A DNA stretch of 64,000 bases from NCBI GenBank assembly GCA_030998225.1, contig JAPYXD010000715.1:2728001-2792000 (forward strand), in the 5' to 3' direction. The translations under genes and the position numbers were made by a program. Position 1 is the first letter of the stretch, and each line of letters begins with the position of its first letter. Below the pieces are notes generated by a model, which was given only the letters and a program-made list of their open reading frames with translations, made no database searches and was not told the DNA's origin. Shown one piece after another: positions 1 through 16,421 of the stretch. This DNA is from Diplolepis rosae. Its lineage: Eukaryota; Arthropoda; Insecta; Hymenoptera; Diplolepididae.

Positions 1-340
1 GAAGATACATTGAATTTCTATTTCTGACGTAAGAACCAACATTCATTTCGGCGTTTCTTTTACAATTTGTATTTTTTGCATTTGACTATTTGATGCCAAT
101 ATCGAACATTTTTTTTGGATCTCATAAAAATTTATGTTATCTAAATATTATAATTTTTTTGTTATAAATAATTACATAGTTTTGTTTTTGAACTTAACAT
201 AAGGTTACATGTGATTTTTTCTTATATAACTAAATACATCAATAATTTTTATTTCATATTCGTAAATTATAAATATCAGCTAATATAAAATAATAATACA
301 TAAAACTGTAATATAAAACGTAATTTCATAATGTAGATTT
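1..340. other. AT-rich stretch, no gene seen
   Basis: Very AT-rich sequence downstream of the last retroelement gene. Nothing here matches the LTR at 15,668-16,421, so the 3' LTR and polypurine tract must lie to the left of the window or be lost. Confidence 0.6.
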
Positions 341-790
341 TTAAGAATTATTTTTATATTTTCTATTACGTAAAGGATTGCGGCAGTTATGAGCTAAATG
401 CCCTCTTTGAAAACACCTTTCACAAGAGTTGGTCCATTTTTGCAAGGTTTCTTTACTGATTTCATCAGTTATTTTGAAAATTCTCGTTTCTGGGATTAAG
501 CTTTTTTCTTTCATTTCTTCTAAAAATACATATCTTGTGGAAAGCATTTCCAAGAGTTTAGATGCTGCATTTTGCTTTGCAGACTTTTTTTGAGGGGCCG
601 GTTCCCCAATACAAGAGAAAGTTATTTTATTTTTAAAGATTTCGCAAGTTGCTTGGAACGGTGGCAGTTCTTGGTGTTTTCCAAGCGATTTTACAATATA
701 TGAAGGTTCGGAGAAATCATACTCAATGCTTATCTCGTTTAAAACTTGTACAGCAGTGACTTTCGATAGGTCTCTTGTCTGCAAGGCCAT
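341..790 (-). CDS. dsRNA-binding domain plus CCHC zinc-knuckle protein (copy 3)
   Basis: 149 aa. Residues about 11-84 read as a dsRNA-binding domain: an N-terminal helix, the P-S-Y strand start, G-K-H, an F-x-A-x-C strand, then a basic K-K-S-A-K-x-x-A-A helix that in this fold contacts the dsRNA backbone. A zinc knuckle follows, C123-x2-C126-x4-H131-x4-C136, then a short basic tail. The same dsRBD-then-knuckle order occurs in the ORF at 3984-4568, and a related two-domain form at 4606-5343, so these look like diverged duplicates. The ATG lies 10 bases after a splice acceptor-like TTTTGCAG on the minus strand. Known dsRBD proteins of insect viruses bind long dsRNA and suppress RNAi. That role here is inference. 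Host capture versus an old viral gene cannot be decided. Confidence 0.75.
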   Translation of the reverse strand: MALQTRDLSKVTAVQVLNEISIEYDFSEPSYIVKSLGKHQELPPFQATCEIFKNKITFSCIGEPAPQKKSAKQNAASKLLEMLSTRYVFLEEMKEKSLIPETRIFKITDEISKETLQKWTNSCERCFQRGHLAHNCRNPLRNRKYKNNS

Positions 791-811
791 TGTTTTTGAT
801 CTGCAAAAGAA
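791..811 (-). promoter_or_regulatory. Splice acceptor-like site before dsRBD ORF
   Basis: Minus-strand TTCTTTTGCAG at 811-801, ten bases before the ATG at 790. A T-rich tract ending in CAG fits a 3' splice site for a subgenomic mRNA. No matching donor is proven. Confidence 0.4.
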
Positions 812-1041
812 TTACCTGTTTGAGTTGATGATTGAATTTGTTGAAATTCTAAAGTTAGTTAGTTTTTTTTTGTAATAATTTTGTGTTTGTTGATATATTC
901 ACTTTCCGCGTTTCCTAACTCAAAGAGATATTTCATGCAGAGAAAACAGTGGTCCGTTTTTAAGAATATTTTAATTTATTAAGGTTTGTCGTTACATTAT
1001 AGCGGTTAAGGAAGAAGTAGTGGTGTATATGAAATATGATT

Positions 1042-1260
1042 TTAAACAACGAATAAAAAATTAAAAGGGAAAAAGCTGAGTTCTGTCATCCAACAATCCT
1101 CGCAAACAAGTTTTTTTTCGAGAACATTCATGTAAAAATTCTCGACCAGGGTTGTGCAGCAGTATTCTGACCATAATTGATTTTCAAAATACGGCTGAAC
1201 ATCCTGCTCGCTTGCTCGAACTTCTTCTGCTTCGATTGTTTCGATTTCTTGGGGCAGCAT
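1042..1260 (-). CDS. Small Cys-containing ORF of unknown function
   Basis: 72 aa. The N-terminus is acidic and Glu-rich, followed by a Y-C-C ... C-x2-C-W pattern that could bind a metal, and a hydrophobic Phe-rich C-terminal tail. I do not recognise a family. The Y-C ... C-x2-C-aromatic spacing resembles the neighbouring ORF at 1459-1806, so the two may be distant duplicates or two parts of one spliced product. The ATG sits four bases after the acceptor-like CCCCAACAG. The reading frame could be fortuitous, as it is short and lies in AT-rich DNA. Confidence 0.35.
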   Translation of the reverse strand: MLPQEIETIEAEEVRASEQDVQPYFENQLWSEYCCTTLVENFYMNVLEKKLVCEDCWMTELSFFPFNFLFVV

Positions 1261-1458
1261 TTTTCTGTTGGGGAAATTTACAATATTTAAGGAATTTGAA
1301 ATATTTGCAAAATTTACAATTTTTTAGTATTAAGGATTTTATTAAATTTAACAAAATTTTTCATGCGTGATTACATGCGTGGAAGGTAGATACGTATAAT
1401 CATGCAGGGGTATTTTCTACTTGAACTTCGTTTCCTTGGCTAATTTCGAATTTATAAT

Positions 1459-1806
1459 TTAAATATCGTTCGATACATTCTCTACAATCAGCTGCTTTTT
1501 TCGCGGAGTAATTAATAGTTCTTGACAACCGTAACAATTCATATATATGCATTCCAATTTACAAATGGAATGCCATGAAGTAAAAAATTCACAGTTATTT
1601 TGAGTTTCCTGATCTAATTTCTCGAAACAGAATTGGCAATATCTTTTTGTGGTTTGGTGATTATAATATAAAAACAATGTTGAGGGTTCTAATTCGAAGC
1701 AATAACTCTGTAATAAGTGCGCGTATGCTATCGGATAGTCTTGCGGACATACACCGTCTACTGGTCCAAGATGGTTAACAATAGGTTCACTTGGAGTTGG
1801 TATCAT
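1459..1806 (-). CDS. Cys-rich small protein, possible zinc-binding, unknown family
   Basis: 115 aa with about nine cysteines. The second half contains C-x2-C, then further Cys residues with a W-H-S-I-C segment, and ends with C-x2-C before a basic P-R-K-K tail. The paired cysteines and histidine suggest one or two zinc sites, loosely like MYND or RING modules, but the spacing fits neither family well enough to name it. It has no signal peptide and no membrane segment. The ATG lies three bases after an acceptor-like TAG preceded by CTAAC on the minus strand. Its place between env and a dsRBD gene in the retroelement suggests an accessory protein. The function is unknown. Confidence 0.5.
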   Translation of the reverse strand: MIPTPSEPIVNHLGPVDGVCPQDYPIAYAHLLQSYCFELEPSTLFLYYNHQTTKRYCQFCFEKLDQETQNNCEFFTSWHSICKLECIYMNCYGCQELLITPRKKQLIVENVSNDI

Positions 1807-2142
1807 TTTCTACAAATTGTTAGAATAGATTTATTTTATTAAGGTCTGATAAGGAGATTGAAAAATAACTTTTTGAATATATTTTCTAATCATGCAAGGT
1901 AAAAGATTTTGCTAAAAGTATTTTACTTTCCGTCAGAAAAACAACTTTTATATTACAGTTTGTTTTTCCTTTAGTAAGAAACATTAAAGACGTGGGTACA
2001 AAAACTGTCCTTCTGATGGTATAGGTCGTTTATGCACGTGGTTTTGAGAAAGGTAAGGACGGAATGTACCTGTATCTGAAAATTTTGTGAATTGACTTTA
2101 AGTCTATTAAAGAAAAGGGTGAAAGATGGAATAAAGGAAAGG
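1807..2142. other. Non-coding gap between accessory genes
   Basis: About 336 bases. I see no ORF of interest, only the acceptor-like site before the Cys-rich ORF. Confidence 0.5.
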
Positions 2143-3924
2143 TCAAAAGTTAAACGTCAAGTCGGTCAGTAAAGGTTTTGTCACTGAGCTTAAAGGAGTT
2201 TTTTGTATAAGTTCTATACGTGTTGGCGTTTTGTTTATTTTTTTAGATATTTTTTGAATTTTCAATAGTAATAATCCTAAAATTGTAATCATAAGTAAAG
2301 TGATAAAGATTAGTGCTAATGTTAATTTATGTGCACTAGAAATAAAAATTGATGGAATGATTTTTTGAATGTTTGTATATTTTGTAAGGATAAAGACATG
2401 GTTTTCGAAGATTGATAATGGCATGTCTTCTTTTTGCTGAAGAAGAAGTAATACCTTTTTTAGTAAGTGAGGCTTTTGAATGGAAATATTATATAAGAAT
2501 GGTGAAATTATAGCAAGGGAAGTAGTTGATTTGCTGACTGGAATTGAATTATCCATTATATTCAAATGGTTTTGAAGATGGTAATATGGAGTTGATGAAT
2601 CTAGATTGCAACCTGATTTTGTTTGCAAAATTCCTATTCCTTGGAGTGTGATTAAGGTCTTAGAGTTTTTTCGACATGATAAGAAAATTTGTCGGGGGAA
2701 AATTGTTGAGTATAGCCATCCATGATGAAATTGCAATGGTGTTACAAAGGGATATTCACTAAAACTGATGAATATTTTACACTTGTATGGTTCTGAATTT
2801 AGAAACATTGATGTTTCACAAATAGGATTGTTATCGATGTTAGATATAGATCTTGGTGGGTGACAAAATGTTTGGAATCCATTTTGATAACATGCATTGA
2901 GGAAATTTTCATTTGTTATAAAGTATGATTGGTTATTTGAAGAAATAGCGAAATAAGAATTTTGAGGTTTTATGTAAATAGAGGAAATTACGTCAGTATT
3001 AAAATCGAGATGTATTGGAATTGGATGTGGTTTAAATAATTGAAATTCTTCAGCAGATGGGATTGGTATAGTCATAATAAAAATCAAGTACTTATCGAAT
3101 AAGAAGTATTGTATTTTAGAAAATGGAAGGACCATAGAAAAAAGGGATGTTGAAAGGTGTGGGTCTTCTTTGTTGGATTTGAAGTCTAAGAAGGTATCAG
3201 GAAGTAGCATAGGGTGCCATAAATTAGTTGCGGCATGGGTAATAGCTTCTGTAAGTTGGTCAAGGAGTAAAAGAAAAGATTGAGAAATTTCATGCAGGTC
3301 TTTAAGCCAATTTGCTGCTAATATTCGATATAGGTGAATATTTGGATCTTTTTGAGAATTATGCCATTTTTTGTAGGTCATAATGTTGTCAAGTTTTGAA
3401 GAAAGATTTGTAACTTTTTGGAAAAATGGATTTGGAAGTAGAAATAAATTTTCTTTGGGCCAGTAAAGGGAGGTTTCATGTCTCATTCTTAATTCTAAAA
3501 GTACTTTTTGTATCTGTTGCAAGAATGGATCATTAGTGTTAGAAATATTCGTGATATTACGAGCTTGTCTAGATATAAATGATATTTCTTCAAGAAAATA
3601 GTTGATGCGTTGTTCTATAAAATCAAGTTGTGTCTGATGATCGTATAAATTACAATTATTGGCAATATTTGAGAGTATGCAATATTCATATAATTTATGT
3701 GAGAAATCTATTATTTTGTATTTAAGTACGTCTGGCTGAAAGATATCGATATAAGATATAAAATGATATTTTTCAGAAAAAAGACGAACTTTTGAAATTG
3801 GTTCAAAATAAATCCCTGAAGAATGAGAAAATTGTGAGTCTATGAAGTATTTTTCTGCTTTGGAGAAAAGGAGTGGAATTAAAATTAAATACACTCTGGA
3901 TGCTAGTTGATTAAGGAAATTCAT
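2143..3924 (-). CDS. env: Errantivirus/baculovirus-F-like envelope protein
   Basis: 593 aa. There is an N-terminal hydrophobic segment (about residues 8-20) as a possible signal peptide and a G-I-Y-F-E-P start of the F-like ectodomain. A long helical region follows, then the typical errantivirus Env core with a strand-rich block ending in P-H-P-I-P-I (about residues 280-305), several Cys residues, and one transmembrane helix at about 530-554 followed by a basic cytoplasmic tail of about 39 residues. The family mediates membrane fusion. I do not see the dibasic furin site and Gly-rich fusion peptide expected near the N-terminus of F proteins, so fusion activity is doubtful. The start is preceded by a strong splice acceptor (TTTTCTTTTTCAG), matching spliced env mRNAs of errantiviruses. 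It is the second env of this element. Confidence 0.65.
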   Translation of the reverse strand: MNFLNQLASRVYLILIPLLFSKAEKYFIDSQFSHSSGIYFEPISKVRLFSEKYHFISYIDIFQPDVLKYKIIDFSHKLYEYCILSNIANNCNLYDHQTQLDFIEQRINYFLEEISFISRQARNITNISNTNDPFLQQIQKVLLELRMRHETSLYWPKENLFLLPNPFFQKVTNLSSKLDNIMTYKKWHNSQKDPNIHLYRILAANWLKDLHEISQSFLLLLDQLTEAITHAATNLWHPMLLPDTFLDFKSNKEDPHLSTSLFSMVLPFSKIQYFLFDKYLIFIMTIPIPSAEEFQLFKPHPIPIHLDFNTDVISSIYIKPQNSYFAISSNNQSYFITNENFLNACYQNGFQTFCHPPRSISNIDNNPICETSMFLNSEPYKCKIFISFSEYPFVTPLQFHHGWLYSTIFPRQIFLSCRKNSKTLITLQGIGILQTKSGCNLDSSTPYYHLQNHLNIMDNSIPVSKSTTSLAIISPFLYNISIQKPHLLKKVLLLLQQKEDMPLSIFENHVFILTKYTNIQKIIPSIFISSAHKLTLALIFITLLMITILGLLLLKIQKISKKINKTPTRIELIQKTPLSSVTKPLLTDLTFNF

Positions 3925-3940
3925 TAGGCTTCTCGGAAGG

Positions 3941-3983: not shown

Positions 3984-4568
3984 TTACATGTGGTTGGATT
4001 TAGGTCTAGAAGTGTTTTGGAGAAAAGGGGAAAAAAGTCTACTAAATGTTGAGGAGTTTCTTGGTGGAACTGGAGGGGGAAATTGGGTTGATTTGTCTAC
4101 TTTAAAAATATTTCGTCTACGGCATTCTTTTGTAGCATGCATTTGAGTGTTACAAAATCTACAGGAATTTTCCCAAGGTATTAATTTTGGTCTTGGATCG
4201 GTTTGAATACTTTGATTTTTGGTTTTTTGCCTTTTTTTATCATCATTATTATAAAAATTTTCGTCGCAGAGATCGTATGATCTTATTAGTAGTAATAATA
4301 ATTTTAAAGCTGCTCTATTTTCTGCTAATTCACTAGTAGGGCCGGCTTGTATAACGAAATGTTCATTTATATTAATTTGTGCGAGAAAAAATGAGTTTGT
4401 TTTCGAATTCGGATCAGGATAGACTGTATATTGCGGTAACGGCAGTCCATATTTTATCGTGAAGTTTCTTAAAATTTCTACATGATTTAAAAATCCCATG
4501 GAGTCTGTTCTGTATTTCTTTTTTGGGTAACTTGGTACGTGTGTAGGCTCGTTGTAGTAATGCTCCAT
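3984..4568 (-). CDS. dsRNA-binding domain plus CCHC zinc-knuckle protein (copy 2)
   Basis: 194 aa. Residues about 27-96 fit a dsRNA-binding fold: helix, P-Q-Y-T-V strand, a loop with H-F-V-I, then the helix A-E-N-R-A-A-L-K-L-L-L. The basic K-K-x-A-K motif that normally grips dsRNA is replaced by S-E-L-A-E-N-R, so RNA affinity may be reduced. The zinc knuckle is C136-x2-C139-x4-H144-x4-C149. A proline-rich P-P-P-V-P-P-R stretch near the C-terminus looks like an SH3-type or late-domain-like motif. The gene sits between env and the two-dsRBD gene. The same architecture at 341-790 argues for duplication inside the element. Family assignment is from the pattern, the function is inferred. Confidence 0.65.
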   Translation of the reverse strand: MEHYYNEPTHVPSYPKKKYRTDSMGFLNHVEILRNFTIKYGLPLPQYTVYPDPNSKTNSFFLAQININEHFVIQAGPTSELAENRAALKLLLLLIRSYDLCDENFYNNDDKKRQKTKNQSIQTDPRPKLIPWENSCRFCNTQMHATKECRRRNIFKVDKSTQFPPPVPPRNSSTFSRLFSPFLQNTSRPKSNHM

Positions 4569-4605: not shown

Positions 4606-5343
4606 TTAGAATTTATTGTACTGGTTGGGAGGTCTATATCCGCATTTAAAACACTTTTTAAAGCTTTTCGTAGAGAAAGATGATGAAGTATGATTATTAT
4701 TTGTTTTCATTTTATATGAGTTTGTATTTTTATCACGATTGTTATTTGAAGTAATAGGTTTTGTAATTTGGCTACTCGTTGAAGGTTTCGGATCGTTTAT
4801 AGATGATTCTTGAATTGTTACATGCAAATGTTCCAGTGAGTTTATCAAACGTAGTTCACATTTCTCGTCTTTATGTGAAAGAGAATTAATAACTTTTATG
4901 GCAGCAAAATCCTTAGCTGTTTTTATTGAGTTTGCTATTCCTATTTGTTTAATGTTATTAATGAAACAAATTGCTATGTATGTTGAGTCTTTTGATGAGG
5001 TTTTTATTCGTAATACTGTATATTTTGGATACTCAAATTTATTTTCAGTGCAAATTTCGTTTAATTTTTTGCAATTTTTACTAATAGAGTTTGGTTGGAC
5101 GTTTTGATTTGTTTCCTTTGATTCATTAATTAAGGCATTATATAAATTTTGTGCTACCTTTTGCTTTACATTTTCTTTATCTTTGCCACTATTCATTATT
5201 ATATAATTTTTATATTGTAAATTAACGTGAAATAGACATTCATTATTATTGGTTTGTTCAATGAGTATCTCATAAATGAGGGGTGGATCTCCTCTTTGTT
5301 GAATAATTTTGTTTAGTAAGGTTGTAAAAGGAACATGCGACAT
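4606..5343 (-). CDS. Tandem dsRNA-binding-domain protein
   Basis: 245 aa with two dsRBD-like modules, about residues 5-73 and 87-156. Both show the helix / P-x-Y-x-(V/I) strand / strand / strand / A-A helix order; the second ends with T-A-K-D-F-A-A-I-K, close to the family's dsRNA-contact helix. A Ser/Asn/Lys-rich linker follows, and a C-terminal K-C-F-K-C-G that begins like a zinc knuckle but runs into a stop before the His and last Cys, so the knuckle is absent or truncated. Tandem dsRBDs resemble host R2D2/Loquacious-type proteins and viral silencing suppressors. The gene overlaps neither neighbour and starts just after an acceptor-like CTAACATCCTTAG. Confidence 0.7.
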   Translation of the reverse strand: MSHVPFTTLLNKIIQQRGDPPLIYEILIEQTNNNECLFHVNLQYKNYIIMNSGKDKENVKQKVAQNLYNALINESKETNQNVQPNSISKNCKKLNEICTENKFEYPKYTVLRIKTSSKDSTYIAICFINNIKQIGIANSIKTAKDFAAIKVINSLSHKDEKCELRLINSLEHLHVTIQESSINDPKPSTSSQITKPITSNNNRDKNTNSYKMKTNNNHTSSSFSTKSFKKCFKCGYRPPNQYNKF

Positions 5344-5353
5344 TCTAAGGATG

Positions 5354-6073
5354 TTAGATTTGGATAGAGTAGTGGGTTCTACTAAGTTCTTCTTTTAGTT
5401 CAGAGTGAGGATAAAGAGTTGTGTTTGTATTATTGTGATCTTTACCTGAAGTAGTATTTGCGTAATACGAAGGACTTTTAGGTGCCTCTTTTGAGCTTTG
5501 TGGCGCTGAAGCTGTTAGCAGTTCTTGATGACTCTCAGCAGGAGGTCCAGGAGGTCGATGGGTACCTAAGTGTAATAAGAGGTTAGTGACCGAATCCCAG
5601 AAGGCGCCTAGTAGATGGAGAGACCATCCAAATAATCTGTGTAGCGCATATCCATGAATAATGGTATCAGCTATCAATTTAATCCCTCTAATTATTATTA
5701 TTAATCCAATTAGGCCTGCACTAGTAGTTCCAAAACTTGTAAAAATTGTCCAAAATCTACCCCATGCGGATTCAGCAATTTTATCAATTACATCTTCATT
5801 AAATAAATTCGTTAATGATATTCCTTGATTAATAGTTGGATGTCCTGTTATTTCTCTAGCTAAAGAATTTAGAATCATTGGTTTTTCTGCTGGAAACATA
5901 ATATGATCTCGCAGTTTATCAAGATCAGATTGAGAATAAATGCCACTTGTTGCTAAGGATGAAGGATTTGTGTATTTCCAGGTTGCTTTTGTGAGAGGTT
6001 TAACTATAGTTGGTGCTATGGATTCGACAGGATTTGGAAGTAATTTGTACCACGTTTCTCCAAAAAGGTACAT
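5354..6073 (-). pseudogene. C-terminal part of frameshifted class III (gB/chuvirus-like) glycoprotein
   Basis: 239 aa in a different frame from the ORF at 6000-7385 and continuing it: a P-P-M-Y-L-F-G segment, an ectodomain stem, a hydrophobic transmembrane run at about residues 115-130 (G-L-I-G-L-I-I-I-I), a second hydrophobic amphipathic region, and a Pro/Ser-rich cytoplasmic tail. The reading frame stays open upstream of the ATG at 6073, which shows that this ATG is not the true start. The join between frames falls within roughly 6095-6120 and is consistent with a one-base indel. I therefore read the two ORFs as one broken envelope gene. Confidence 0.6.
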
Positions 6074-7385
6074 TGGTGGAAGGAAAAGAATTGCAATTTG
6101 TTTGGATACCTGATTTTGTTAATATATGAGTTCGTGGAGAAAGGAAAAAGGATTGATTTCCTCTAAATATTGGTAGTTGTAGATAACATTCTTCAGTTTT
6201 GCGATATTTTACTTCAACCGGTATACATTTTACGATATGTACTACTTCTCCTGCAATTACTGACATATATCCTGGGCCTTTCATTAAATGATATGCAAAT
6301 TCGTCTGGTGATTGGGTTGCTAAGGTTAATGTATTTCTAAAAACTTGCTGTTCAAGTATGCATCGTTGAGTAAGAACATCGTGATAAAGTCTATTTACTT
6401 CAGTGCGTATGTGTCGTTCTACATATATAAATTTAGAATTGACGTATGTGAAAATGTCCATATTTTGAACTTCTAAATGTTTATTTTCTAAAAATGAATT
6501 CCCAGGTCTGGTTTCAAAAATTAATAATTTTGGATGCTCAGTTTGTATTAAAACGTAACTGCAAACTGGTTTTCTTGTTTTTTCAGCCAGTACGAAGGTT
6601 ATATCTTCAGTCGTTAAAGAATAAAAGGTTTCAGAATTGTCTGTCGTGTTGTCATATGTTTTATTTGCTGGTCCTTCATAAATAATTTCATATTTGTTAA
6701 AATTACATACGTCATTAGGTAATGTATCCCAGAATGTTTGTCCATATTCTACGTCTGTACAGAATGTGTCTGAAAGTGTGCATATTATTCCAGATCCTAA
6801 TTGAATTTTATTTGAATTTAAATGAATAGTCGCGTAATGTTCTTGTAAAGTTATTTTGAATATTGCTTGGACTACGACATTATTCCATGTTCCATATGGG
6901 TCAGAAAATTGTGTACCAGTACAGTCTCCGTTAGGTGTTACAGAACCTGCTAAAGTAACGCTATGAAATGAAGTTTCGTTTACTTTTAACTTTGATATCT
7001 GAAGAGAAGGGGTTACTAAAAATGTTCCTATTGTGTGCATTTGATTACATTGATCTCGTGTAACATCATGTATATATTCACTGTGGCCATTTGCTACTAT
7101 GGAACTGTGAGAATGCATACCACAATGAGAGATAGCGCGTCGAATTTCTATTTTGCATTGTATTACTTTTGTATTTGAAAATCCAGTTAATTGTAAAAGT
7201 TGTATATAAGTTCTTTCAACATGTACTTGAGATCGAGGTAAATCACATTCTCCTACCTCTAGTAAAGATAATGTCGTAATATTTGATTGATTTGAACCGC
7301 AATCGACTCCTATGATGGCGTAGACTGTTGTTATATAGTTGAAGTTGAAAGTGAGCAGTGCCAAAAGGAAGCCTCGTAATCCCAT
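6000..7385 (-). pseudogene. N-terminal part of frameshifted class III (gB/chuvirus-like) glycoprotein
   Basis: 461 aa. There is a clear signal peptide (about residues 1-23, hydrophobic, ending V-Y-A), directly followed by an N-terminal D-C ... S-L-L-E-V-G-E-C pattern that I associate with chuvirus and related Monjiviricetes glycoproteins. There are many Cys residues and several N-x-S/T sites. It lacks its transmembrane anchor, which is found in the next frame (5354-6073). The last roughly 35 residues here are out-of-frame read-through. Chuvirus-type glycoproteins are reported as env genes of some insect BEL/Pao elements; finding one in a Gypsy-type element beside an F-like env is unusual. A strong acceptor (CCTCCTTTTTCCAG) precedes the ATG by two bases. 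The family call is from memory of the pattern and needs a profile search. Confidence 0.6.
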
Positions 7386-7496: not shown

Positions 7497-7778
7497 CTAG
7501 TTCATTATATCCAACATGTGGGCTATGACAATGTGATTTGATAGCCGTAAACTGAGAATTAAATTTTTGTATGCGTCCGGTCCTCTTGTTTTGATTGTTG
7601 AAAAAATGTCTTTTATTATTTCTGGATTGTTTAGATTTCTGCTCCATGTGGGAATATTACAGTCGTCTTGATTAAAAATTCCGGTTTGAATTAAATATGG
7701 CCAGAGAGCTACAATGTCGATAAAACAGGGAACTATTTCAATGAGATCATCTATGCGTTTGCGATGAATTTGTTCCAT
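7497..7778 (-). CDS. CARD-only protein resembling the Dronc (initiator caspase) prodomain
   Basis: 93 aa, all of it one death-fold module. The first helix starts M-E-Q-I-H-R-K-R-I; the middle has a Leu/Ile-rich L-I-Q-x-G-I-F stretch; the last part has the hallmark T-R-G-P-D-A-Y-K-N-L-I-x-x-L-R, the (K/R)RGPxA(Y/F)xxL motif of caspase-2/Dronc-type CARDs. There is no caspase domain, so it is a CARD-only protein. In animals such proteins bind the CARD of an initiator caspase or Apaf-1 homologue and usually block apoptosome assembly. I infer capture of a host Dronc CARD and an anti-apoptotic role for the retroelement. It sits first after pol, separated by about 240 bases of AT-rich DNA, with an acceptor-like TTTTCAG 24 bases before the ATG. 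Confidence 0.7.
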   Translation of the reverse strand: MEQIHRKRIDDLIEIVPCFIDIVALWPYLIQTGIFNQDDCNIPTWSRNLNNPEIIKDIFSTIKTRGPDAYKNLILSLRLSNHIVIAHMLDIMN

Positions 7779-8017: not shown

Positions 8018-11000
8018 TTACTTTTGTACTTGCACATGTGAGCGTTTTAGTCTATTAATGTGGACAACAGTAGGTTTGCCTTTATAGCTTATTTTGACAT
8101 TCCCTTTTCCTAACACTTCCAATATTTCATAAGGCCCTGTATAATGGCTGTCAAGTTTTTTAATTTTTCCTCCTTTTAATAAAAACACGTAATCTCCAAT
8201 TTTTACTTCTAAAGGACTTATTTTTTTGTCATAATATAATTTCGATTTTTCTTTTGCTGAAATAAGATTTTCTCTTGCTTGTGTTCGCATTTCATGTAGT
8301 TGTGTTACGAAATTAATTAAATAATCGTCATATGTTTGTAATTTTTCTTGTTGTGATAAAGGTTCACTGGAAGGTTCACGAGCTAGTTTACCAAAAACCA
8401 ATTCATAGGGTGTGCATTTTGTGCCTTCATGTACACTAGTATTATATGAGAACATTGCTAGTTCAAGCCAATCATCCCATTCTGAATTTTTTGTAACAAA
8501 TTGTATGAGATATTCTCCTAAAACATGATGTGAACGTTCTAATGACCCGTTTGATTGAGGGTGAAATGCTGTGGTACGAAATTGTTTAATTCTAAAACGT
8601 TTTGCCAATCTTTTTAATAAATTACTTAAAAAATCTCTGCCTTGGTCAGTAAGTACTCCTTTCGGTGATCCAAATATGCAAATAAATTTTTTCACGAAAG
8701 CATCTGCTATCGTACTAGCTTGGTGAATAGGAAGAGGTATTGCTAAGGAATATTTGGTAAAATTGTCTTGTATCGTTAGAATATATAAGTTACCAGATTT
8801 TGTTTCAGGTAGTGGACCAACAATGTCCATTGATATTTTTTCAAAAGCAGTAGTGGGTGTGTCAGTGATTACCATAGGGTTTTTTTTTTTGACTCTGATT
8901 AATTTTTTCAGTTGACATTGTAAACAGCCTTGAATATATTTTTGAATGTCTACTTTCATATTTTCCCAAAAAAATTTTTGGCGAATTCGGCTATAAGTTT
9001 TTGTAACGCCTTTATGGCCTCCTAATGCTGAAGAATGAGCTTCTTCAATTAAATGAGTTCGTTGTTCCTTTGTTGGATATTGCGTTATTCCATTGCAAAC
9101 TATAATTTTTGTAGTTGAATTTGAAAAAATTAAATCGAAAATTGATTTCACTTCTTCCCAAGGTATATGATTAATTATGGAAGTTTTTGATATACTAATA
9201 GATCGTAATTTAAATTTTTGAGATAATTCATGTAATGAATGAATTGATAATTTTATATTATTTAAAGTTTCAGATAAATTATCTTTAGTTTCTTCTTCAA
9301 TTGGAAGTGCAAAATGGTAGTAGTTTCCTTTTTTAATCTCTTTTGCTATCCCCTTTTGTAAATTTTTAAATTTTGGTAAAGTTTCACGTTTTTCTAAAGT
9401 TTTTGATCCGTTGTCGCGAGGACTTCCATTTGTTGTAACAAAATATGCATAATTATCTTTTCGCATAGTTAATTGATCGCGACATTCAACTAAATTTTTC
9501 TTTGTTATAATTTTTTCTGTTTGAGAGTTTATAGGAGGAGGTTCTGGGGGTGGACGATTATAATTATCATGATCTTTATCGATTTTTTCAGGATTTATTT
9601 GAGATCTTCGGTTTAATCTCAAATTTTCTTCAAAATAAGGCTCTTCAAATTCTTCTTCCAATTTTTCTTCTTGGTTTTCTTCAAACTTCTCTTCAAAATT
9701 TTCCTCAAGAATGTCTTCAAAATTTTCTTCAAAATTCTGTTCGAAATTCTTTTCAAAATCGTCTTCAAGATCATCTTCAAAATTCTCTTCCCAATTTTCT
9801 TCATAATTTTCTCCATCATTTCCTTCGTGTGAGGTTTCAATGTCGTTGATTTCATCTTCTGAGGTTGAAAAATAATTCTCACTTTCTTCACTTTCAAATT
9901 CATTAATATTTTTTGGCTTCTTGGCATTTTTCTTCTTTTTATTTTTTGCTTGAGTTTGTTTCAAATAATCTAAATAATCAGGATCAGAGTCGGAATCTGA
10001 TTCTACTTTTGTTCGGCTTCCCTTTTGCACATTTATTTCTGGTAATTCGTTTTCAAACATTTGTTTTCTTGGCCTACCTCTCTTTCTTTTTGTTTGAGAG
10101 GGAATATTTTTCAATTTTGTAAGTAGATTTTTTCTTGGCCTACCTCGTGGTTTTTTCATAAGAGGTTTAGAAGAACAATTTTCGTCTAATTTTTCTTGAG
10201 TTTCGTTTCGATTCAAATTTTTTGCTTTTTCTTGCTCTATTCTCTTTTGAGCTCTCGTAGTAATAGTTTTCCATGATAAATTTTCGTATTTTTTGGAAAA
10301 CACTGGACTTAATAAAAATATTGTCATAAAAATAAGTCTTGAAGCCATATTTTTGAATAAATTTGTGTATTTTAAAATATTCTTACCAATCTCACTGAGT
10401 GATTCTTCACTAAGGAATTCCGGAAAATATTCTGGAATTTTTGAGTCAATATTTAATATTTGGGCTTCCGGAATTTCGCTAAAATGATCTACGTCGTCTG
10501 GTACGATTTCTGGATTCAAGTTTCTTCGTTTTGAAGGTTTTACCTCATTTTTAGAGTTTTCTTGTTTTTTTCTTGTAAAAGTTTTCTTGGAAAACATTTT
10601 TTCTTGGGAAGTCATAAAAGTATCATTGGCGTCAACTTGTAAATATCTTGATTTCTTTTTGTTATCATCAATAGGGTTTCTTGAGAGAGCGTCTGCATTT
10701 ACATTCATTTTTCCAGCTTTGTAAATTACATCAAAATCATATTCTGCGAGTTTCAATCTCCAACGTGAAACTCGTGAACAAGGGTCTTTAGAATTTTGAA
10801 ACCAAACTAGAGGTTTGTGATCAGTCACTAAAGTAAATTTTCTCCCATACAAATAAGGACGAAAATGAGTTACACAAAATATTATAGCAAGAGCTTCCTT
10901 CTCATATGTATCATATTTTTTCTCAGTATCACTTAGACTACGTGAAGCATATGCTATTGGCTTATCTTTACCTATTTTACCTTGTGATAAAATACCTCCT

Positions 11001-12787
11001 ATTGCAAATCCTGAGGCATCTGTTGTGAGTATAAAAGGTTGAGAAAAATCAGGTCGTTGTAAAAGTGGTTCTTCACATAATTTTGCTTTTAAAATTTCGA
11101 AAGCTGCTTGTTGTTTTTCTGTCCAATTAAAAGGTGTATCTTTTTTCAGAAGTTGATTTAAAGGACTTGCAATTTTTGAAAATCCATCAATAAATCGTCT
11201 ATAATATCCTGCTAAGCCTAAAAATTGTTTAACATTTTTCTGTGTTTTTGGGATTGGAAAGTTTTTTACAGCTATTATCTTTTTTGGATCTGGACGTACT
11301 CCATTTTTATCAATTGTATGACCTAAATATCCTACTTCAGGTCGTAAAAATTCGCATTTGTCTGGTTGTAAATGAAGATTTGCTTTTCTAAGTCTTTCTG
11401 CTAAATTGTTGAATTTAATTTCGTGTTCTTCTAGAGTATTTGCATATATAACTATGTCATCAAGATATACAAAAAGTTCCGTTCCGATTAATCCAGTTAA
11501 TGTTAAATCCATTAATCTTTGAAATGTAGCAGGTGCAGTTTTTAAACCGAAAGGCATTCTATCGAATTCGTAATGACCGTGAGGTGTAGAAAACGCGGTT
11601 TTATGCGAGTCTTTTGGATCCATTTTTATATGGTGAAAACCGGTAGCTAAATCAAACACTGAAAAATATTTTGCTGATCCTAGAGAATCAAGTATATCGT
11701 TTATATTAGGTAAAGGATACGAATCGCCAATTGTTTTTTCATTTAATTTACGAAAATCAAGAACCATTCTCCATTTTATTTTTCCTTGAGAATCAGGTTT
11801 TTTAGGAACTATCCACACTGGAGTGTTATATGGTGATTGTGAGGGCTTGATTATTTTATTTTTTAATAATTCATCGACTTGTCTTGTAATTTCTTCCTTG
11901 TGAACTGGGGGAAATCTATATTGTCTTGAAAAAATTGGAGCGTCATCTACAGTTGGAATTGAATGTTGTAATACATTAGTAGCTTCAAGTGGTTCTCCTG
12001 GGATTTGAAATCTGTCTGCATTATTTTTAATTAATTTTTCTACATGTTCATATTCATCTTGATTTAAATGGTCTAATCGAAGAAGTTTTTTAATACATTC
12101 TACTCTGTCTTCGTCTGTTACATTATAAAATTTGCATGAGTTAATTAGAGAATTGTCAGTTTTTAAAAAGTTATTTAATATTTTACTTGATAAATCTTCG
12201 TTATTTCTTTGTTTGAAAGTAATTAAATTTCCAATTTGTTTATAACATTCTTGTTCTTCAAAGTCTTCTAAATTAACTAATGGGACGGATAATGTAATTG
12301 GGATTTCATTTGTGTTTGCAAATTTTAAATAGGCTTTTCCCTTGTGATTTTTTACAACTGCGTCACCTACGTAGACGCCATCTTGGATATGCAATCGAGG
12401 TACATACCCTTCACTCTTTTCTGTATTTTTTATATTAACATAAAATGTTATAACTGTTCGAGCTGGAATAGTAAATGATTTGGTAGATTTAAAAGGGTAA
12501 CAGTGGTTCTCAATTTCTAAGCATTTTGAAGTATAGTTTATATTCACACTATTATCTTGAAAAAATTCTGATCCTAATACTCCATCTTCTTCTACTGGGA
12601 CTTTATTCGGAATAATGTTAAATATCGTTGGATAACCAAAAATGTTTATTTTTACCTGTCCTAACGTGTAAAGTGGTAAATCATTAATTCCTGTAAGTTT
12701 CAATACGTTATGCCTATTTATTGGTACTTCAGGGTTGAGAACCTTTTGTTTAATTAAATTTCGAGCAGCACCAGTATCAATCATCAT
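8018..12787 (-). CDS. pol: Pol polyprotein (protease, reverse transcriptase, RNase H, integrase) with AT-hook/acidic insert
   Basis: 1589 aa from the first Met, but that Met lies just before the protease active site D4-T-G-A, so translation must start upstream; the frame is open back to a TAG at 12,977-12,979. Order: aspartic protease, RT with Y-L-D-D at about 441-444, RNase H starting T-T-D-A-S-G near 590, integrase zinc finger (H-x-H then C-L-Q-C) near 1245-1300, the integrase D-D-E triad near 1320, 1380 and 1415, and a C-terminal GPY/F-type Y-T-G-P-Y near 1550. Between RNase H and integrase are roughly 400 extra residues with two AT-hooks (G-R-P-R-K near 880 and 903) and a run of E-E-N-F-E-type acidic repeats (about 980-1050). 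The frame is intact over its full length. It probably needs ribosomal frameshifting after gag. Confidence 0.95.
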   Translation of the reverse strand: MMIDTGAARNLIKQKVLNPEVPINRHNVLKLTGINDLPLYTLGQVKINIFGYPTIFNIIPNKVPVEEDGVLGSEFFQDNSVNINYTSKCLEIENHCYPFKSTKSFTIPARTVITFYVNIKNTEKSEGYVPRLHIQDGVYVGDAVVKNHKGKAYLKFANTNEIPITLSVPLVNLEDFEEQECYKQIGNLITFKQRNNEDLSSKILNNFLKTDNSLINSCKFYNVTDEDRVECIKKLLRLDHLNQDEYEHVEKLIKNNADRFQIPGEPLEATNVLQHSIPTVDDAPIFSRQYRFPPVHKEEITRQVDELLKNKIIKPSQSPYNTPVWIVPKKPDSQGKIKWRMVLDFRKLNEKTIGDSYPLPNINDILDSLGSAKYFSVFDLATGFHHIKMDPKDSHKTAFSTPHGHYEFDRMPFGLKTAPATFQRLMDLTLTGLIGTELFVYLDDIVIYANTLEEHEIKFNNLAERLRKANLHLQPDKCEFLRPEVGYLGHTIDKNGVRPDPKKIIAVKNFPIPKTQKNVKQFLGLAGYYRRFIDGFSKIASPLNQLLKKDTPFNWTEKQQAAFEILKAKLCEEPLLQRPDFSQPFILTTDASGFAIGGILSQGKIGKDKPIAYASRSLSDTEKKYDTYEKEALAIIFCVTHFRPYLYGRKFTLVTDHKPLVWFQNSKDPCSRVSRWRLKLAEYDFDVIYKAGKMNVNADALSRNPIDDNKKKSRYLQVDANDTFMTSQEKMFSKKTFTRKKQENSKNEVKPSKRRNLNPEIVPDDVDHFSEIPEAQILNIDSKIPEYFPEFLSEESLSEIGKNILKYTNLFKNMASRLIFMTIFLLSPVFSKKYENLSWKTITTRAQKRIEQEKAKNLNRNETQEKLDENCSSKPLMKKPRGRPRKNLLTKLKNIPSQTKRKRGRPRKQMFENELPEINVQKGSRTKVESDSDSDPDYLDYLKQTQAKNKKKKNAKKPKNINEFESEESENYFSTSEDEINDIETSHEGNDGENYEENWEENFEDDLEDDFEKNFEQNFEENFEDILEENFEEKFEENQEEKLEEEFEEPYFEENLRLNRRSQINPEKIDKDHDNYNRPPPEPPPINSQTEKIITKKNLVECRDQLTMRKDNYAYFVTTNGSPRDNGSKTLEKRETLPKFKNLQKGIAKEIKKGNYYHFALPIEEETKDNLSETLNNIKLSIHSLHELSQKFKLRSISISKTSIINHIPWEEVKSIFDLIFSNSTTKIIVCNGITQYPTKEQRTHLIEEAHSSALGGHKGVTKTYSRIRQKFFWENMKVDIQKYIQGCLQCQLKKLIRVKKKNPMVITDTPTTAFEKISMDIVGPLPETKSGNLYILTIQDNFTKYSLAIPLPIHQASTIADAFVKKFICIFGSPKGVLTDQGRDFLSNLLKRLAKRFRIKQFRTTAFHPQSNGSLERSHHVLGEYLIQFVTKNSEWDDWLELAMFSYNTSVHEGTKCTPYELVFGKLAREPSSEPLSQQEKLQTYDDYLINFVTQLHEMRTQARENLISAKEKSKLYYDKKISPLEVKIGDYVFLLKGGKIKKLDSHYTGPYEILEVLGKGNVKISYKGKPTVVHINRLKRSHVQVQK
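9640..10150 (-). other. AT-hook pair and acidic repeat inside Pol
   Basis: Part of the pol frame. Two G-R-P-R-K AT-hook cores are encoded near 10,132-10,150 and 10,070-10,085, then an Asp/Glu-rich low-complexity tract made of about ten E-x-N-F-E-type units (9640-9850). AT-hooks bind the minor groove of AT-rich DNA. Placed just before integrase, they may steer integration or tether Pol to chromatin; that is inference. The acidic tract gives rise to overlapping spurious ORFs on both strands. Confidence 0.7.
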
Positions 12788-12976: not shown

Positions 12977-14764
12977 CTATTTGGTCGTATCTTGCAGTCT
13001 CGTACTAAATGACCGGGTTTTTTTACAATAATTGCAAACTACTTCAGTATAATTTGAATTTTGTTGATTATTATTATTTTGTAAAAACCTATATTCATAT
13101 GGTTTATTTCGATTTTGAGACTGTCCTAAGTTAAAGTTTTGATACTGTCCTGGATTCCATTGTCTATTATTATTATTAACATTATTGTTATTATTGTAAA
13201 AATTTCTAGGAAAATTATTATTATTGTTGTATCTTTGTTGTAAAACATTATTATTATTGTTTTTATAATTATTATTTCTATTTTGCAAATTATTATTGTT
13301 ATTAAAATTATAATTTTTATTTCTTAAAAAATTGTTATTCGGAAAATTATTGTAATTGTTTCTTGCAAAATTATTATTATTATTACTTCTTTGACCATTG
13401 AAATTACTATATCCTTGTTGGTTAGGACGCAAAAAATTTTTTTGTTTATTATTAAAAACTGCATCTTGAGCTTTACTTAAATGAAAACATTTTTCAGTTG
13501 TGTGACCTGGTTTTTTACAAATTAAACAAATAGTTTTGTTTTCAAGTCCTACGTTAAATCGGGTTGTTTTATTATTTTTATTATTAGATGATTCGTCACT
13601 TTTTGAATAATCCATATTTTTATTTCTTCGTAGTGCGGAATTTGCATCTAATCTTCGTTCTATATCAATACTGTCGCTAATAACTTCTTTAAAAGTATCC
13701 TTTTCTTCAACACGAATTTCTAACTCAGGACGCAAACCGCGTATAAAACATTGAATTACGTCTTTTTCAAGGTTTACTTTAAAATTATTATCTACCTGAC
13801 CATTATTATTGAGCCCGTGAGCATCTTCGATTTTGTCGGCAATTTCTTTTATCCTAGCAGCATAGGAAAGTACATTTTCTCTTTCCCACATAAATGTATT
13901 ACCTAATTCTCCCTGTAACTGGTACACGCTTTTCGCAGGGGCATATACTCTTTTCAATTTTTCTATCAATTCTTCTATTGTTGTATAAGTAGAACCAAAA
14001 ATGCATTTTCTGGCTTCTCCAGTTAATTTACCTCTTAATAGCCTTGCGAGGTTTTCTTGAGCTGCAGGTGTCGGTAGCATTGCCTTTGCCTCCATGCAAC
14101 CCTCAATAAAATGTGACAATGGGAGGTTACTTCCGTCGAACAATGGGACCACCTCTAGCGCGTCGCGTAAGGATACCTGCTGGCTGTTGGGTATGACCAC
14201 GGCCATCTCTTCGTTATTTACTCTTACGGGATTATCCTGATTTATGGCTTCTGTGTCGCTTTTGTCGTCGTCGCTATCGTTGTTACTAATTATAGATTCG
14301 CGTGCCAATGAGGTTTCCAATCTTTCTTTCAAAGTTTTATTATCTACTGTTATTACTGTTGAGCTTAGCAAATTGAATTCGTCCAAATAAGATAATTCAT
14401 TCGTTAGAGTTTGATCTTGATTACTGGATCCTGTTACAATGCTTAAATCTGGACAGAAACTTGAATGAATCCCGCTAGTTTTTCCTGAATTTTCACGTGA
14501 TATATTTTGATTATTAATTAGAGTCTTGTCTAAACTTGAATCATCTAACTTAAGAGTGTTATCTAATTCTTGTTCTGTAGGGATTGGATCAGGGATATTT
14601 TGGCATTTATTATCAGTTGAATATTCTCTATTTCTAATTGGTTTTATTTTTAAATTACCCTTTTGATTCAAATCTACTATTTTTGCAAGCTGACTATCTT
14701 GTTTAGCTTGACTACGTGTTATAACTTTTGGGGTAGATTCTAAAGGGATATTTGGTTTTGACAT
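12977..14764 (-). CDS. gag: Gag structural polyprotein, broken in its second zinc knuckle
   Basis: 595 aa. A Ser/Asp-rich N-terminus is followed by a capsid-like core (about residues 190-370; L-F-D-G-S, then L-x-G-x-A, then Y-x-x-x-I). An intact zinc knuckle C-L-I-C-x4-H-x4-C lies at about 415-430, followed by an Asn-rich low-complexity region (about 440-570). The second knuckle begins C-N-Y-C-K-K and then fails. In the +1 frame the next codons give P-G-H-L-V-R-D-C, exactly completing a C-x2-C-x4-H-x4-C knuckle and running on to a TAA near 12,919. A seven-A run (13,018-13,024 region) therefore holds one extra base. The ancestral gag probably ended near 12,919 and overlapped pol by about 60 bases in the -1 relation typical of retroelements. 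Confidence 0.9.
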   Translation of the reverse strand: MSKPNIPLESTPKVITRSQAKQDSQLAKIVDLNQKGNLKIKPIRNREYSTDNKCQNIPDPIPTEQELDNTLKLDDSSLDKTLINNQNISRENSGKTSGIHSSFCPDLSIVTGSSNQDQTLTNELSYLDEFNLLSSTVITVDNKTLKERLETSLARESIISNNDSDDDKSDTEAINQDNPVRVNNEEMAVVIPNSQQVSLRDALEVVPLFDGSNLPLSHFIEGCMEAKAMLPTPAAQENLARLLRGKLTGEARKCIFGSTYTTIEELIEKLKRVYAPAKSVYQLQGELGNTFMWERENVLSYAARIKEIADKIEDAHGLNNNGQVDNNFKVNLEKDVIQCFIRGLRPELEIRVEEKDTFKEVISDSIDIERRLDANSALRRNKNMDYSKSDESSNNKNNKTTRFNVGLENKTICLICKKPGHTTEKCFHLSKAQDAVFNNKQKNFLRPNQQGYSNFNGQRSNNNNNFARNNYNNFPNNNFLRNKNYNFNNNNNLQNRNNNYKNNNNNVLQQRYNNNNNFPRNFYNNNNNVNNNNRQWNPGQYQNFNLGQSQNRNKPYEYRFLQNNNNQQNSNYTEVVCNYCKKTRSFSTRLQDTTK

Positions 14765-15635: not shown

Positions 15636-15653
15636 TTCCCGGCCGATGCACCA
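15636..15653 (-). promoter_or_regulatory. Primer-binding site, tRNA-Gly(GCC)
   Basis: The minus strand reads TGGTGCATCGGCCGGGAA, an 18-base complement of the 3' end of tRNA-Gly (acceptor stem GATGCA plus CCA). It lies 14 bases inside the LTR edge and marks the start of minus-strand DNA synthesis. The tRNA identity is from my memory of the conserved tRNA-Gly 3' end. Confidence 0.85.
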
Positions 15654-15802
15654 GAAAAAAGGAAGTATGTTACGTCACAAGTACGTAAATACTGACCTTG
15701 ATCGAAGATTCCTCGTTTTAAGTTAGGATCGAATGATCCTCGCTTAGGGATGAGGATAAGTCAATGAAAAGACACAATGATTATCAAATAATAAAAATTG
15801 AA

Positions 15803-15808
15803 TTTATT
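15803..15808 (-). terminator. Candidate polyadenylation signal in LTR
   Basis: AATAAA on the minus strand about 440 bases downstream of the TATA box, a usual place for the R-region poly(A) signal. The region is AT-rich, so chance is possible. Confidence 0.4.
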
Positions 15809-15963
15809 AAAATAATTATAAATTGAAAATATTAAATTGCCGATACAATTGATTTATAATTGGAGGCACAGGCTGGTTGGTTGGAAAGAGACAGAACATA
15901 TATATAGAGAGAGAGAAGAGTTCGGTACCTTTATGATTTCCCTTTGTTTCCTTAAATATTCCT

Positions 15964-16031
15964 CACAGGTATGACTGCGATGCGATTCCCACAGGTGTGA
16001 CTGCGAAGGAGTGAATATCCACAGGTGTGAT
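15964..16031 (-). repeat. Three CACAGGTRTGA motifs in LTR
   Basis: Plus-strand copies start at 15,964, 15,990 and 16,020. The first two share CACAGGT(A/G)TGACTGCGA (17 bp), the third the first 11 bases. Being within the transcribed LTR part, they could be enhancer or RNA elements; CAGGTG is also an E-box core. Confidence 0.65.
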
Positions 16032-16243
16032 AAGGACACAACAACTATTCACTCTTTTTGGCACTGAGTCTAAGATCCTTTCAAGAATTGAAAAACGGAC
16101 CACGGTAAATTTATGACTCTCGGGTCTTTACATTGTCAAACTGCACGGTATAATTGTCTCACGCTGAGAATCCCTTTTAGTTTTTTAGAAAATCCCGCAC
16201 TTAAATACTGCTCACAAGACTAGTTTTCCCTTGGCGGTGTGTC

Positions 16244-16273
16244 CTTTTTATATTATATTTTTTGGTGACGTCA
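16244..16273 (-). promoter_or_regulatory. LTR core promoter: CRE-like site and TATA box
   Basis: The minus strand reads TGACGTCA (16,273-16,266, a perfect CRE/ATF palindrome) and, a few bases downstream, TATAATATAAAAAG (16,257-16,244). A second TGACGT-type half site lies near 16,300 in reverse. This is a plausible RNA polymerase II promoter for the element. Confidence 0.6.
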
Positions 16274-16421
16274 CGCGTTGCGCAGTCTCCCGCTGCGTGT
16301 GACGTAGTTATACCTCTCTTTTCAATAGGTGGTTTTCTCTCTCTTTTAGTAATTTCCCCAGATTTCTCTCTAGACCTAGCCTGTGCCTATAGTACATTCG
16401 AATGCGTCGCGGGACGTGACA

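What the first reader, a model, noticed from the sequence alone, without database searches (positions are those of the whole stretch)
1..16421. Complex Gypsy-type endogenous retrovirus longer than 16 kb with at least seven genes beyond gag-pol
The sequence shows an LTR, tRNA-Gly primer site, gag and pol followed by about eight same-strand ORFs with recognisable domains (CARD, class III glycoprotein, tandem dsRBD, two dsRBD-CCHC, F-like Env, Cys-rich). Known errantiviruses carry gag, pol and one env in about 7-9 kb. A Metaviridae element with an accessory gene set of this size would be the insect counterpart of complex retroviruses, with apparent tools against apoptosis and RNAi.
Basis: partly seen in the sequence, partly recalled or inferred. 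Interest (0 to 1): 0.95.

Follow-up and report, generated by a model that had tools for sequence, protein, structure and literature searches.

The report
Insect retrovirus-like element with ten genes
A young, many-copy retrovirus-like element in an unnamed, probably hymenopteran insect genome carries, besides the usual gag and pol genes, two unrelated membrane-fusion proteins, three proteins with double-stranded-RNA-binding-type domains and a CARD-like protein, which resembles a complex retrovirus outside the retrovirus family.

Summary
The window contains most of one 17,255-bp LTR element on the minus strand; its 3' LTR lies 80-833 bp left of the window. The 754-bp LTRs differ at 3 sites and a 4-bp duplication (CAAG) flanks them. 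Gene order: gag, pol (Ty3/gypsy type), CARD-like, chuvirus-type fusion glycoprotein, tandem dsRBD, dsRBD-CCHC, Baculo_F-type Env, two small Cys-rich ORFs, dsRBD-CCHC.

It is not a chance row of neighbours. Of the 29 best-scoring pol copies (the window's included), 27 have the glycoprotein and/or Env downstream. GP-to-Env and Env-to-last-dsRBD spacings mostly repeat within tens of bases. A diverged subfamily keeps the CARD-to-Env order, with dN/dS of 0.09-0.34.

The window copy looks damaged: its glycoprotein, and gag's second zinc knuckle, lie across two frames. The glycoprotein break recurs in four other listed copies; 68 of 93 listed rows are open over its length.

Function is inferred. The dsRBDs fit suppression of RNAi or RNA packaging; CARD is a weak match; both structure predictions were uninformative. 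My searches found no published insect gypsy element with two fusogen families plus such a set, but one key paper could not be read.

The parts
15668..16421 (-). 5' LTR (754 bp). TATA-like motifs at 16257 and 16252, AATAAA at 15808. The 3' LTR is outside the window (-833 to -80).
15636..15653 (-). primer binding site, 18 of 18 to a tRNA-Gly 3' end (tRNA identity recalled), 14 nt after the LTR
12977..14764 (-). gag, 595 aa ORF with a CCHC knuckle; a second knuckle lies across two frames at its end in this copy
   Evidence: alignment to all ten other copies stops at residue 582
8018..12787 (-). pol, 1589 aa from its first ATG: RT, RNase H, ~555-aa charged spacer, integrase (H2C2, rve, C-terminal domain)
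7497..7778 (-). CARD-like protein, 93 aa
   Evidence: E 0.0037; six further orthologues E 0.001-0.018, all below cut-off; constraint
6000..7385 (-). fusion glycoprotein of the Monjiviricetes (chuvirus) family, N-terminal piece, signal-peptide-like start; frame broken at its end in this copy
   Evidence: (E 1.8e-166)
5354..6073 (-). same glycoprotein, C-terminal piece with transmembrane stretch
   Evidence: (E 1.9e-68)
4606..5343 (-). tandem dsRBD protein, 245 aa, ends in a CxxC half knuckle
   Evidence: (E 3.2e-10, 2 stretches)
3984..4568 (-). dsRBD-CCHC protein, 194 aa (dsRBD below cut-off, E 6.7e-4; knuckle CX2CX4HX4C)
2143..3924 (-). Baculo_F / errantivirus-type Env, 593 aa, RQAR site, C-terminal transmembrane stretch, uninterrupted
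   Evidence: (E 1e-22)
1459..1806 (-). Cys-rich protein, 115 aa, no significant domain
1045..1260 (-). small Cys ORF, 72 aa, no significant domain
   Evidence: no significant constraint
341..790 (-). dsRBD-CCHC protein, 149 aa, dsRBD with a QKKSAKQNAA segment (KKxAK-type RNA-contact motif, recalled)
   Evidence: (E 8.5e-07)

Best explanation
This is a young, high-copy endogenous retrovirus of the Ty3/gypsy (Metaviridae) type that replicates with ten genes. Shown: two LTRs, 4-bp target duplication, a PBS-like site, gag-pol, a fixed order of eight further genes in many copies, and purifying selection on most of the cargo. Inferred: the genomic RNA is made from the LTR promoter and the downstream genes are reached by splicing or internal initiation. 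Particles can carry two fusogens of different ancestry (chuvirus-type glycoprotein and Baculo_F-type Env), which would give two routes into cells, for example soma to germline and individual to individual. The dsRBD proteins bind dsRNA and blunt the siRNA pathway or help package RNA. The CARD-like protein interferes with caspase recruitment. Confidence: structure about 0.95; both glycoproteins maintained by selection about 0.85; dsRBDs as RNAi suppressors about 0.5; CARD as cell-death modulator about 0.3.
For: Both LTRs and TSD; a second copy (C370) with TSD CAGC and LTRs differing by one gap only. Six pairs of window-type LTRs spanning 17.3-19.7 kb, five with Env and/or the last dsRBD gene listed inside (27 of 40 LTR rows used) and the sixth with a glycoprotein. 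27 of 29 scored pol copies (26 of 28 without the window's) with GP and/or Env downstream. Ten further copies read on both sides of Env: CARD in 9, GP in 9, tandem dsRBD in 8, dsRBD-CCHC in 10, both Cys ORFs in 10, last dsRBD in 9 of 10. No stop in the matched part: pol 15 of 29, Env 59 of 74, GP 82 of 93 rows, counted from the tables. Window against a diverged subfamily: dN/dS CARD 0.20, GP 0.13-0.34, tandem dsRBD 0.23-0.25, dsRBD-CCHC 0.09-0.11, Env 0.14-0.16; binomial p 0.0016 to 5.5e-23 (131, N-terminal GP piece not included). Pieces of other copies in public contigs run from one gene into the next: P0035 (GP to dsRBD), P0012 (dsRBD to Env), P0038 and P0039 (GP to Env), P0032 and P0036 (dsRBD to dsRBD).
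Against: The window copy is broken in the glycoprotein and at gag's second knuckle, and four other listed GP copies share the window's reading to its end, so a sublineage seems to spread without a one-frame GP. 2 of 29 pol copies lack the cargo (C108; C45:4532224, rearranged). Some copies lost genes (C364 tandem dsRBD; C387:469k last dsRBD; C370 most of pol to tandem dsRBD; C368 everything after GP). Whole-gene open frames among the copies read: CARD 18 of 18, GP-N 14 of 18, GP-C 8 of 14, tandem dsRBD 16 of 19, dsRBD-CCHC 11 of 21, Env 17 of 21, last dsRBD 6 of 11, but pol only 3 of 10 and gag 1 of 10, partly because loci were cut. Differences private to the window show significant constraint only in tandem dsRBD and the last dsRBD; Env has 1 synonymous to 5 replacement. 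CARD never reaches Pfam's cut-off. Both AlphaFold models are of low confidence (pLDDT 51 and 32) and Foldseek found no CARD. The 72-aa ORF shows no significant constraint. Scored copies are the best few of thousands of candidates, biased towards the window and intact copies. No expression data.
Confidence: 0.9

Rival explanations
1. Two or more nested or adjacent elements: an ordinary gypsy gag-pol next to an unrelated viral insertion carrying GP, dsRBDs and Env.
For: A mosaic of protein origins; 2 of 29 pol copies without cargo.
Against: One LTR pair with TSD encloses all genes; no internal LTR in the window; repeated spacings in tens of copies; fused pieces in public contigs.
Confidence: 0.02
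2. The dsRBD-CCHC proteins are nucleocapsid-like RNA chaperones or packaging factors, not RNAi suppressors.
For: Two carry CX2CX4HX4C knuckles like gag; the dsRBD of the 194-aa protein lacks a KKxAK-type segment (read from the sequence; motif recalled).
Against: Tandem dsRBD is weakly closest in the PDB to Loquacious and R2D2, RNAi cofactors (E 0.004, 0.025); the 149-aa protein has KKSAK.
Confidence: 0.4
3. The cargo is a neutral passenger amplified because pol moves it.
For: Many copies carry stops; singletons in several genes look nearly neutral.
Against: Changes shared by two or more copies: cargo 63 synonymous to 45 replacement and no stop, where sites are about 1:4; dN/dS 0.09-0.34 against the diverged subfamily.
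Confidence: 0.03
4. One of the two glycoproteins is the working fusogen and the other is a relic, a decoy or a superinfection block.
For: The window's GP and four others are broken at the same place; C368 lost Env by deletion (L045, 115).
Against: 68 of 93 GP rows have no stop and a frame long enough for the whole protein; Env has no stop in 59 of 74; both are constrained.
Confidence: 0.25

Closest known systems
Errantivirus-type (envelope-carrying) gypsy elements
   Same: LTRs, gag, Ty3-type pol, a Baculo_F-type Env; gypsy elements with type III glycoproteins are also mentioned in PMC13172572 (passages and Discussion read).
   Different: Two fusogens of different families in one element, three dsRBD-type proteins, a CARD-like and Cys-rich proteins, 17.3 kb. 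Clade of the RT not tested; tRNA-Gly primer (errantiviruses: Lys or Ser, recalled).
Anakin (BEL/Pao element with chuvirus glycoprotein, PMC7642597; passages read)
   Same: Chuvirus-type glycoprotein captured by an LTR element.
   Different: Here the pol is Ty3/gypsy-type and further genes are present.
Jingchuvirales-glycoprotein EVEs beside Gypsy fragments in Hymenoptera (PMC10084718; abstract, Results, Discussion read)
   Same: Hymenopteran endogenous chuvirus-type glycoproteins; the window GP falls among them.
   Different: That paper states no clear evidence of capture by Gypsy; here the capture is direct, with LTRs, TSD and many copies.
Complex retroviruses (Retroviridae; recalled)
   Same: Accessory genes beyond gag-pol-env, apparent counter-defence.
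   Different: Metaviridae-type pol; the Pfam matches of the cargo name no retroviral accessory family.

Membership tests
Metaviridae / Ty3-gypsy | paired LTRs with short target duplication | tested here: met
   754-bp LTRs, CAAG; second copy CAGC
Metaviridae / Ty3-gypsy | pol order RT-RNase H-integrase | tested here: met
   best solved relative Ty3 (E 1.8e-125)
Metaviridae / Ty3-gypsy | placement in an RT tree with named clades | not tested
   no set of named gypsy references was at hand; only the PDB ranking
Errantivirus | Env homologous to baculovirus F | tested here: met
   PF12259 E 1e-22
Errantivirus | RT inside the errantivirus clade | not tested
   as above
   two fusogens of different Pfam families
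Anakin (BEL/Pao) | BEL/Pao polymerase | tested here: not met
   Ty3-type RT/RNase H/integrase; no Pao-type protease among Pfam matches
Anakin (BEL/Pao) | chuvirus-type glycoprotein | tested here: met
   PF24664 E 1.8e-166; about 50% identical to the glycoprotein of Hymenopteran chu-related virus OKIAV146
CARD proteins | CARD above curated score | tested here: not met
   17.7 bits against 23.9; 15.5-19.5 in six orthologues; model uninformative. Hence only 'CARD-like'.
viral suppressors of RNAi | suppresses Dicer/Ago2 silencing | not tested
   needs an assay

The most novel reading that the evidence does not exclude
A lineage of gypsy-type viruses in insects has independently become 'complex': it carries two alternative fusogens acquired from different virus groups and a counter-defence module (three dsRBD proteins and a CARD-like protein), kept by selection, exchanges modules by recombination, and is or was until very recently infectious.
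Probability: 0.55. Interest if true: 0.95.

Novelty: new variant of a known kind. Interest (0 to 1): 0.87.

Why it matters
Accessory genes against host defence are regarded as a hallmark of complex retroviruses of vertebrates (recalled). Here a Metaviridae-type element has built a comparable set from different sources, in a host group whose main antiviral defence is RNAi (recalled). It also bears on a question left open in print, whether Gypsy elements ever captured Jingchuvirales glycoproteins (PMC10084718 found no clear evidence), and offers natural dsRBD proteins that may show how retroelements meet siRNA and piRNA defence.

Tried and rejected
Rejected: nested or tandem unrelated elements; neutral passenger cargo; a chance ORF row. 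Uninformative: AlphaFold of the CARD ORF (pLDDT 51; Foldseek no hit at E 0.001) and of the tandem dsRBD (pLDDT 32); scans of viral contigs for Env, GP, pol and a GP alignment and of prokaryote genomes gave no relatives; PDB sequence searches for GP, Env and gag gave nothing meaningful; NCBIfam gave only sub-cut-off matches, among them RNase III-type for two dsRBD proteins and transposase-type for pol; PHROGs gave one weak match. Novelty searches in the paper library; the most relevant paper (Chary and Hayashi 2025, eLife 108449) is not held, so nothing of it was seen beyond what PMC13172572 says of it.

Dropped before counts: in the codon counts HSPs under 70% identity, copies with under 60% of a gene, gag beyond residue 582 and GP-N beyond 434 (the two last in 110 and 115 only); HSPs under 60% or under 60 columns. 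One search counted some copies twice (overlapping loci) and its dN/dS values are not used here. In one search one of the 93 GP rows (second half of a split copy) was left out; the last 13 of 40 LTR rows.
Full report
The finding. On the minus strand of the window, from 16421 down to its left edge, lies an LTR element with gag, pol and a row of further genes. In 1-8000 there are eight minus-strand ATG ORFs of at least 90 aa, against a mean of 0.17 in 500 first-order Markov sequences.

Ends. The 5' LTR is 16421-15668 (754 bp), followed after 14 nt by an 18-nt match to a tRNA-Gly 3' end (tRNA identity recalled). No second LTR lies in the window. The window is G000:C387:2728001-2792000 of an unnamed 757.7-Mb genome. 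The 8 kb to its left hold the 3' LTR at C387:2727167-2727920, differing at 3 of 754 positions. Both ends are flanked by CAAG, so the boundaries are exact and the element is 17,255 bp. A second copy on C370 has the duplication CAGC and LTRs that differ only by one gap. Both insertions are therefore young; no absolute date is given because the host's rate is unknown.

Genes. Pfam finds RT, RNase H, H2C2 and integrase core in pol; the closest solved structure is Ty3 (E 1.8e-125). Downstream, in order: a 93-aa CARD-like protein (E 0.0037, below the curated cut-off; 0.001-0.018 in six orthologues, each time the first hit and each time below the cut-off); a Monjiviricetes fusion glycoprotein (E 1.8e-166 and 1.9e-68 on two pieces); a tandem dsRBD protein (E 3.2e-10); a dsRBD-CCHC protein (E 6.7e-4, below the cut-off); a Baculo_F-type Env (E 1e-22) with an RQAR site and a C-terminal transmembrane stretch; a 115-aa Cys-rich protein and a 72-aa Cys ORF without significant domain; and a second dsRBD-CCHC protein (E 8.5e-7). 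That the Monjiviricetes glycoprotein is class III is family knowledge, not tested here.

Damage in this copy. The glycoprotein passes from one frame to another where profile position 433 meets 434, and the second zinc knuckle of gag is spread over two frames; alignments of gag to all ten other copies read stop at residue 582 of 595. For the glycoprotein, 82 of 93 listed rows have no stop in the matched part, and 68 of them also have an open frame of at least 676 codons, enough for the whole protein. But four rows besides the window (C252:12839004, C387:6891149, C358:1700030, C422:1161566) match the window's reading through to its broken end (query 1-460 or 1-461). So the break is not private to this copy; a sublineage seems to have spread with it, or it recurs.

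Same gene order in other copies. Whole-genome searches score only the best candidates (Env 74 of 2629; pol 29 of 17,791; GP 92 of 2443; window-type LTR 40 of 2338; last dsRBD 150 of 2286), so counts are of a capped list, biased to close copies, and the window's own copy is included in each. Comparing the listed coordinates: 44 of 92 GP copies have a listed Env downstream, 41 of them at 3,431-3,516 nt (window 3,461); 50 of 74 Env copies have the last dsRBD gene downstream, 37 of them at 3,402-3,468 nt (the window itself 3,134); 19 of 29 pol copies have GP and/or Env downstream. Of the ten pol copies without a listed partner I read 2-5 kb downstream of each: eight carry CARD and GP; one (C45:4532224) runs after about 200 nt into an inverted stretch; one (C108) has no cargo before an LTR fragment. 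Hence 27 of 29. Six pairs of window-type LTRs span 17,255-19,670 bp (27 of the 40 LTR rows were used); five enclose a listed Env and/or last dsRBD, and the sixth (C350) a listed GP.

Ten copies read on both sides of Env were the ten best-scoring Env matches after the window's own: CARD in 9, both GP pieces in 9, tandem dsRBD in 8, dsRBD-CCHC in 10, both Cys ORFs in 10, last dsRBD in 9, downstream LTR within 4.5 kb in 9 (the tenth, C263, has it slightly further). The gaps are losses inside the element (C370 from early pol to the dsRBD-CCHC gene, C364 tandem dsRBD, C387:469k last dsRBD). C368, read downstream of pol, goes from GP straight into an LTR (L045). Over the copies read, whole genes in one open frame: CARD 18 of 18, GP-N 14 of 18, GP-C 8 of 14, tandem dsRBD 16 of 19, dsRBD-CCHC 11 of 21, Env 17 of 21, Cys115 14 of 18, Cys72 15 of 18, last dsRBD 6 of 11, pol 3 of 10, gag 1 of 10; loci that cut a gene count against it.

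Selection. Among up to 19 copies and the window, changes shared by at least two copies in the nine cargo ORFs number 63 synonymous, 45 replacement and no stop, while replacement sites outnumber synonymous ones about four to one. The 194-aa dsRBD-CCHC gene accounts for 36 of the 45. Singletons, which include decay after insertion, contain stops and are mixed (omega 0.23 to 6.55). Differences private to the window are few and significantly constrained only in tandem dsRBD (5 S, 1 N) and the last dsRBD (5 S, 4 N); Env has 1 S to 5 N. Between the window and a diverged subfamily (C182, C55; L043, L044) dN/dS is 0.20 for CARD, 0.25-0.34 and 0.13-0.15 for the two GP pieces, 0.23-0.25 for tandem dsRBD, 0.09-0.11 for dsRBD-CCHC and 0.14-0.16 for Env, with one stop in L043 GP-C and two in L044 Env. 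With CARD also taken from L050 and L052, binomial p against neutrality runs from 0.0016 (CARD, L050) to 5.5e-23 (Env, L043); the N-terminal GP piece was not in that test, and the comparisons share the window and are not independent. The Cys ORFs and last dsRBD could not be tested at that depth; for them the evidence is the shared changes (Cys115 4 S, 2 N, p 0.015; last dsRBD 2 S, 0 N, p 0.041; Cys72 1 S, 0 N, p 0.19). In the diverged subfamily synonymous divergence rises from 0.04 in the N-terminal GP piece to above 1 in Env, which points to recombination between element lineages.

Origins. The GP query found 376 proteins; of the 120 listed, the 19 rows that name an organism or virus are all hymenopteran, mostly ants, or 'Hymenopteran chu-related virus OKIAV146'. 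In a tree of 121 rows the window GP groups with two close pieces and then with P0040, P0041, P0067 and P0069. The host is therefore probably a hymenopteran, an inference. The tandem dsRBD has 36 homologues in public contigs, 68-99% identical, several of them running on into GP, the next dsRBD gene or Env; they may come from the same or a near species. Env has three homologues, two of them joined to GP pieces.

How it may work. Shown: LTRs, TSD, PBS-like site, gene order, constraint. Inferred: transcription from the LTR (TATA-like motifs at 16257 and 16252, AATAAA at 15808), access to the downstream genes by splicing or internal initiation, particles with one or both fusogens, dsRNA binding that blunts siRNA defence or assists packaging, and interference with caspase recruitment. 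The tandem dsRBD is weakly closest to Loquacious and R2D2 in the PDB (E 0.004 and 0.025) and has a match below cut-off to the seadornavirus dsRNA-binding protein (E 1.3e-4).

What is known. Anakin, a BEL/Pao element with a chuvirus glycoprotein, is published (PMC7642597, passages read). PMC10084718 (abstract, Results and Discussion read) reports Gypsy fragments around such glycoproteins in Hymenoptera but no clear capture by Gypsy. PMC13172572 (passages and Discussion read) mentions gypsy elements with type III fusion glycoproteins in mosquitoes. Troyka (PMC12440569, abstract and passages read) lacks envelopes. I found no description of an element with two fusogen families plus dsRBD and CARD-like genes (searches; mostly listings seen), but the most relevant survey (Chary and Hayashi 2025) was not available.

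Verdict. A real, recently mobile, many-copy gypsy-type ERV with an accessory gene set; a new variant of a known kind. Function of the accessory genes is open.

Noticed in passing
33425-64000: Large tandem satellite array (248-bp unit, 498-bp dimer) starting about 17 kb from the element; a pericentromeric or piRNA-cluster-like setting is possible.
   Followed up: no
10738-9074 (inside pol): A spacer of about 555 aa, rich in Lys and Glu with an AT-hook-like motif (Pfam E 0.81), sits between RNase H and integrase; unusually long for a gypsy pol (recalled).
   Followed up: no
G000 C252:12839004, C387:6891149, C358:1700030, C422:1161566: Four other copies match the window's glycoprotein reading to its broken end: a sublineage that spreads with a truncated glycoprotein, or a recurrent or used frame change.
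   Followed up: no
L043, L044 against the window: Synonymous divergence rises from 0.04 in the GP N-terminus to above 1 in Env: mosaic origin by recombination between element lineages.
   Followed up: partly
L027, L033-L041 against window LTR: The other copies read mostly carry a different LTR subtype (83% over 1-435, 93-94% over 609-754) with nearly the same genes; the window belongs to another LTR subfamily.
   Followed up: partly
1260-1045: 72-aa Cys ORF has a weak match to the ZZ zinc domain of CPEB proteins (E 0.074).
   Followed up: no
19769-20473 and 29534-31221: Fragments of a non-LTR-type reverse transcriptase in two about 82%-similar copies.
   Followed up: no
27016-27868: Long inverted repeat, arms of 375 nt (94% complementary) with a 9-nt centre (foldback or MITE-like), related pieces at 25568-25901.
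   Followed up: no
P0147 (Calliopsis andreniformis): An annotated bee protein joins a full chuvirus-type glycoprotein to a gypsy-type RNase H, in the reverse order to this element.
   Followed up: no
4568-3984: The middle dsRBD-CCHC gene has by far the most shared replacement changes among close copies (36, against 22 synonymous), yet dN/dS about 0.1 at depth; fast recent evolution or recombination.
   Followed up: no
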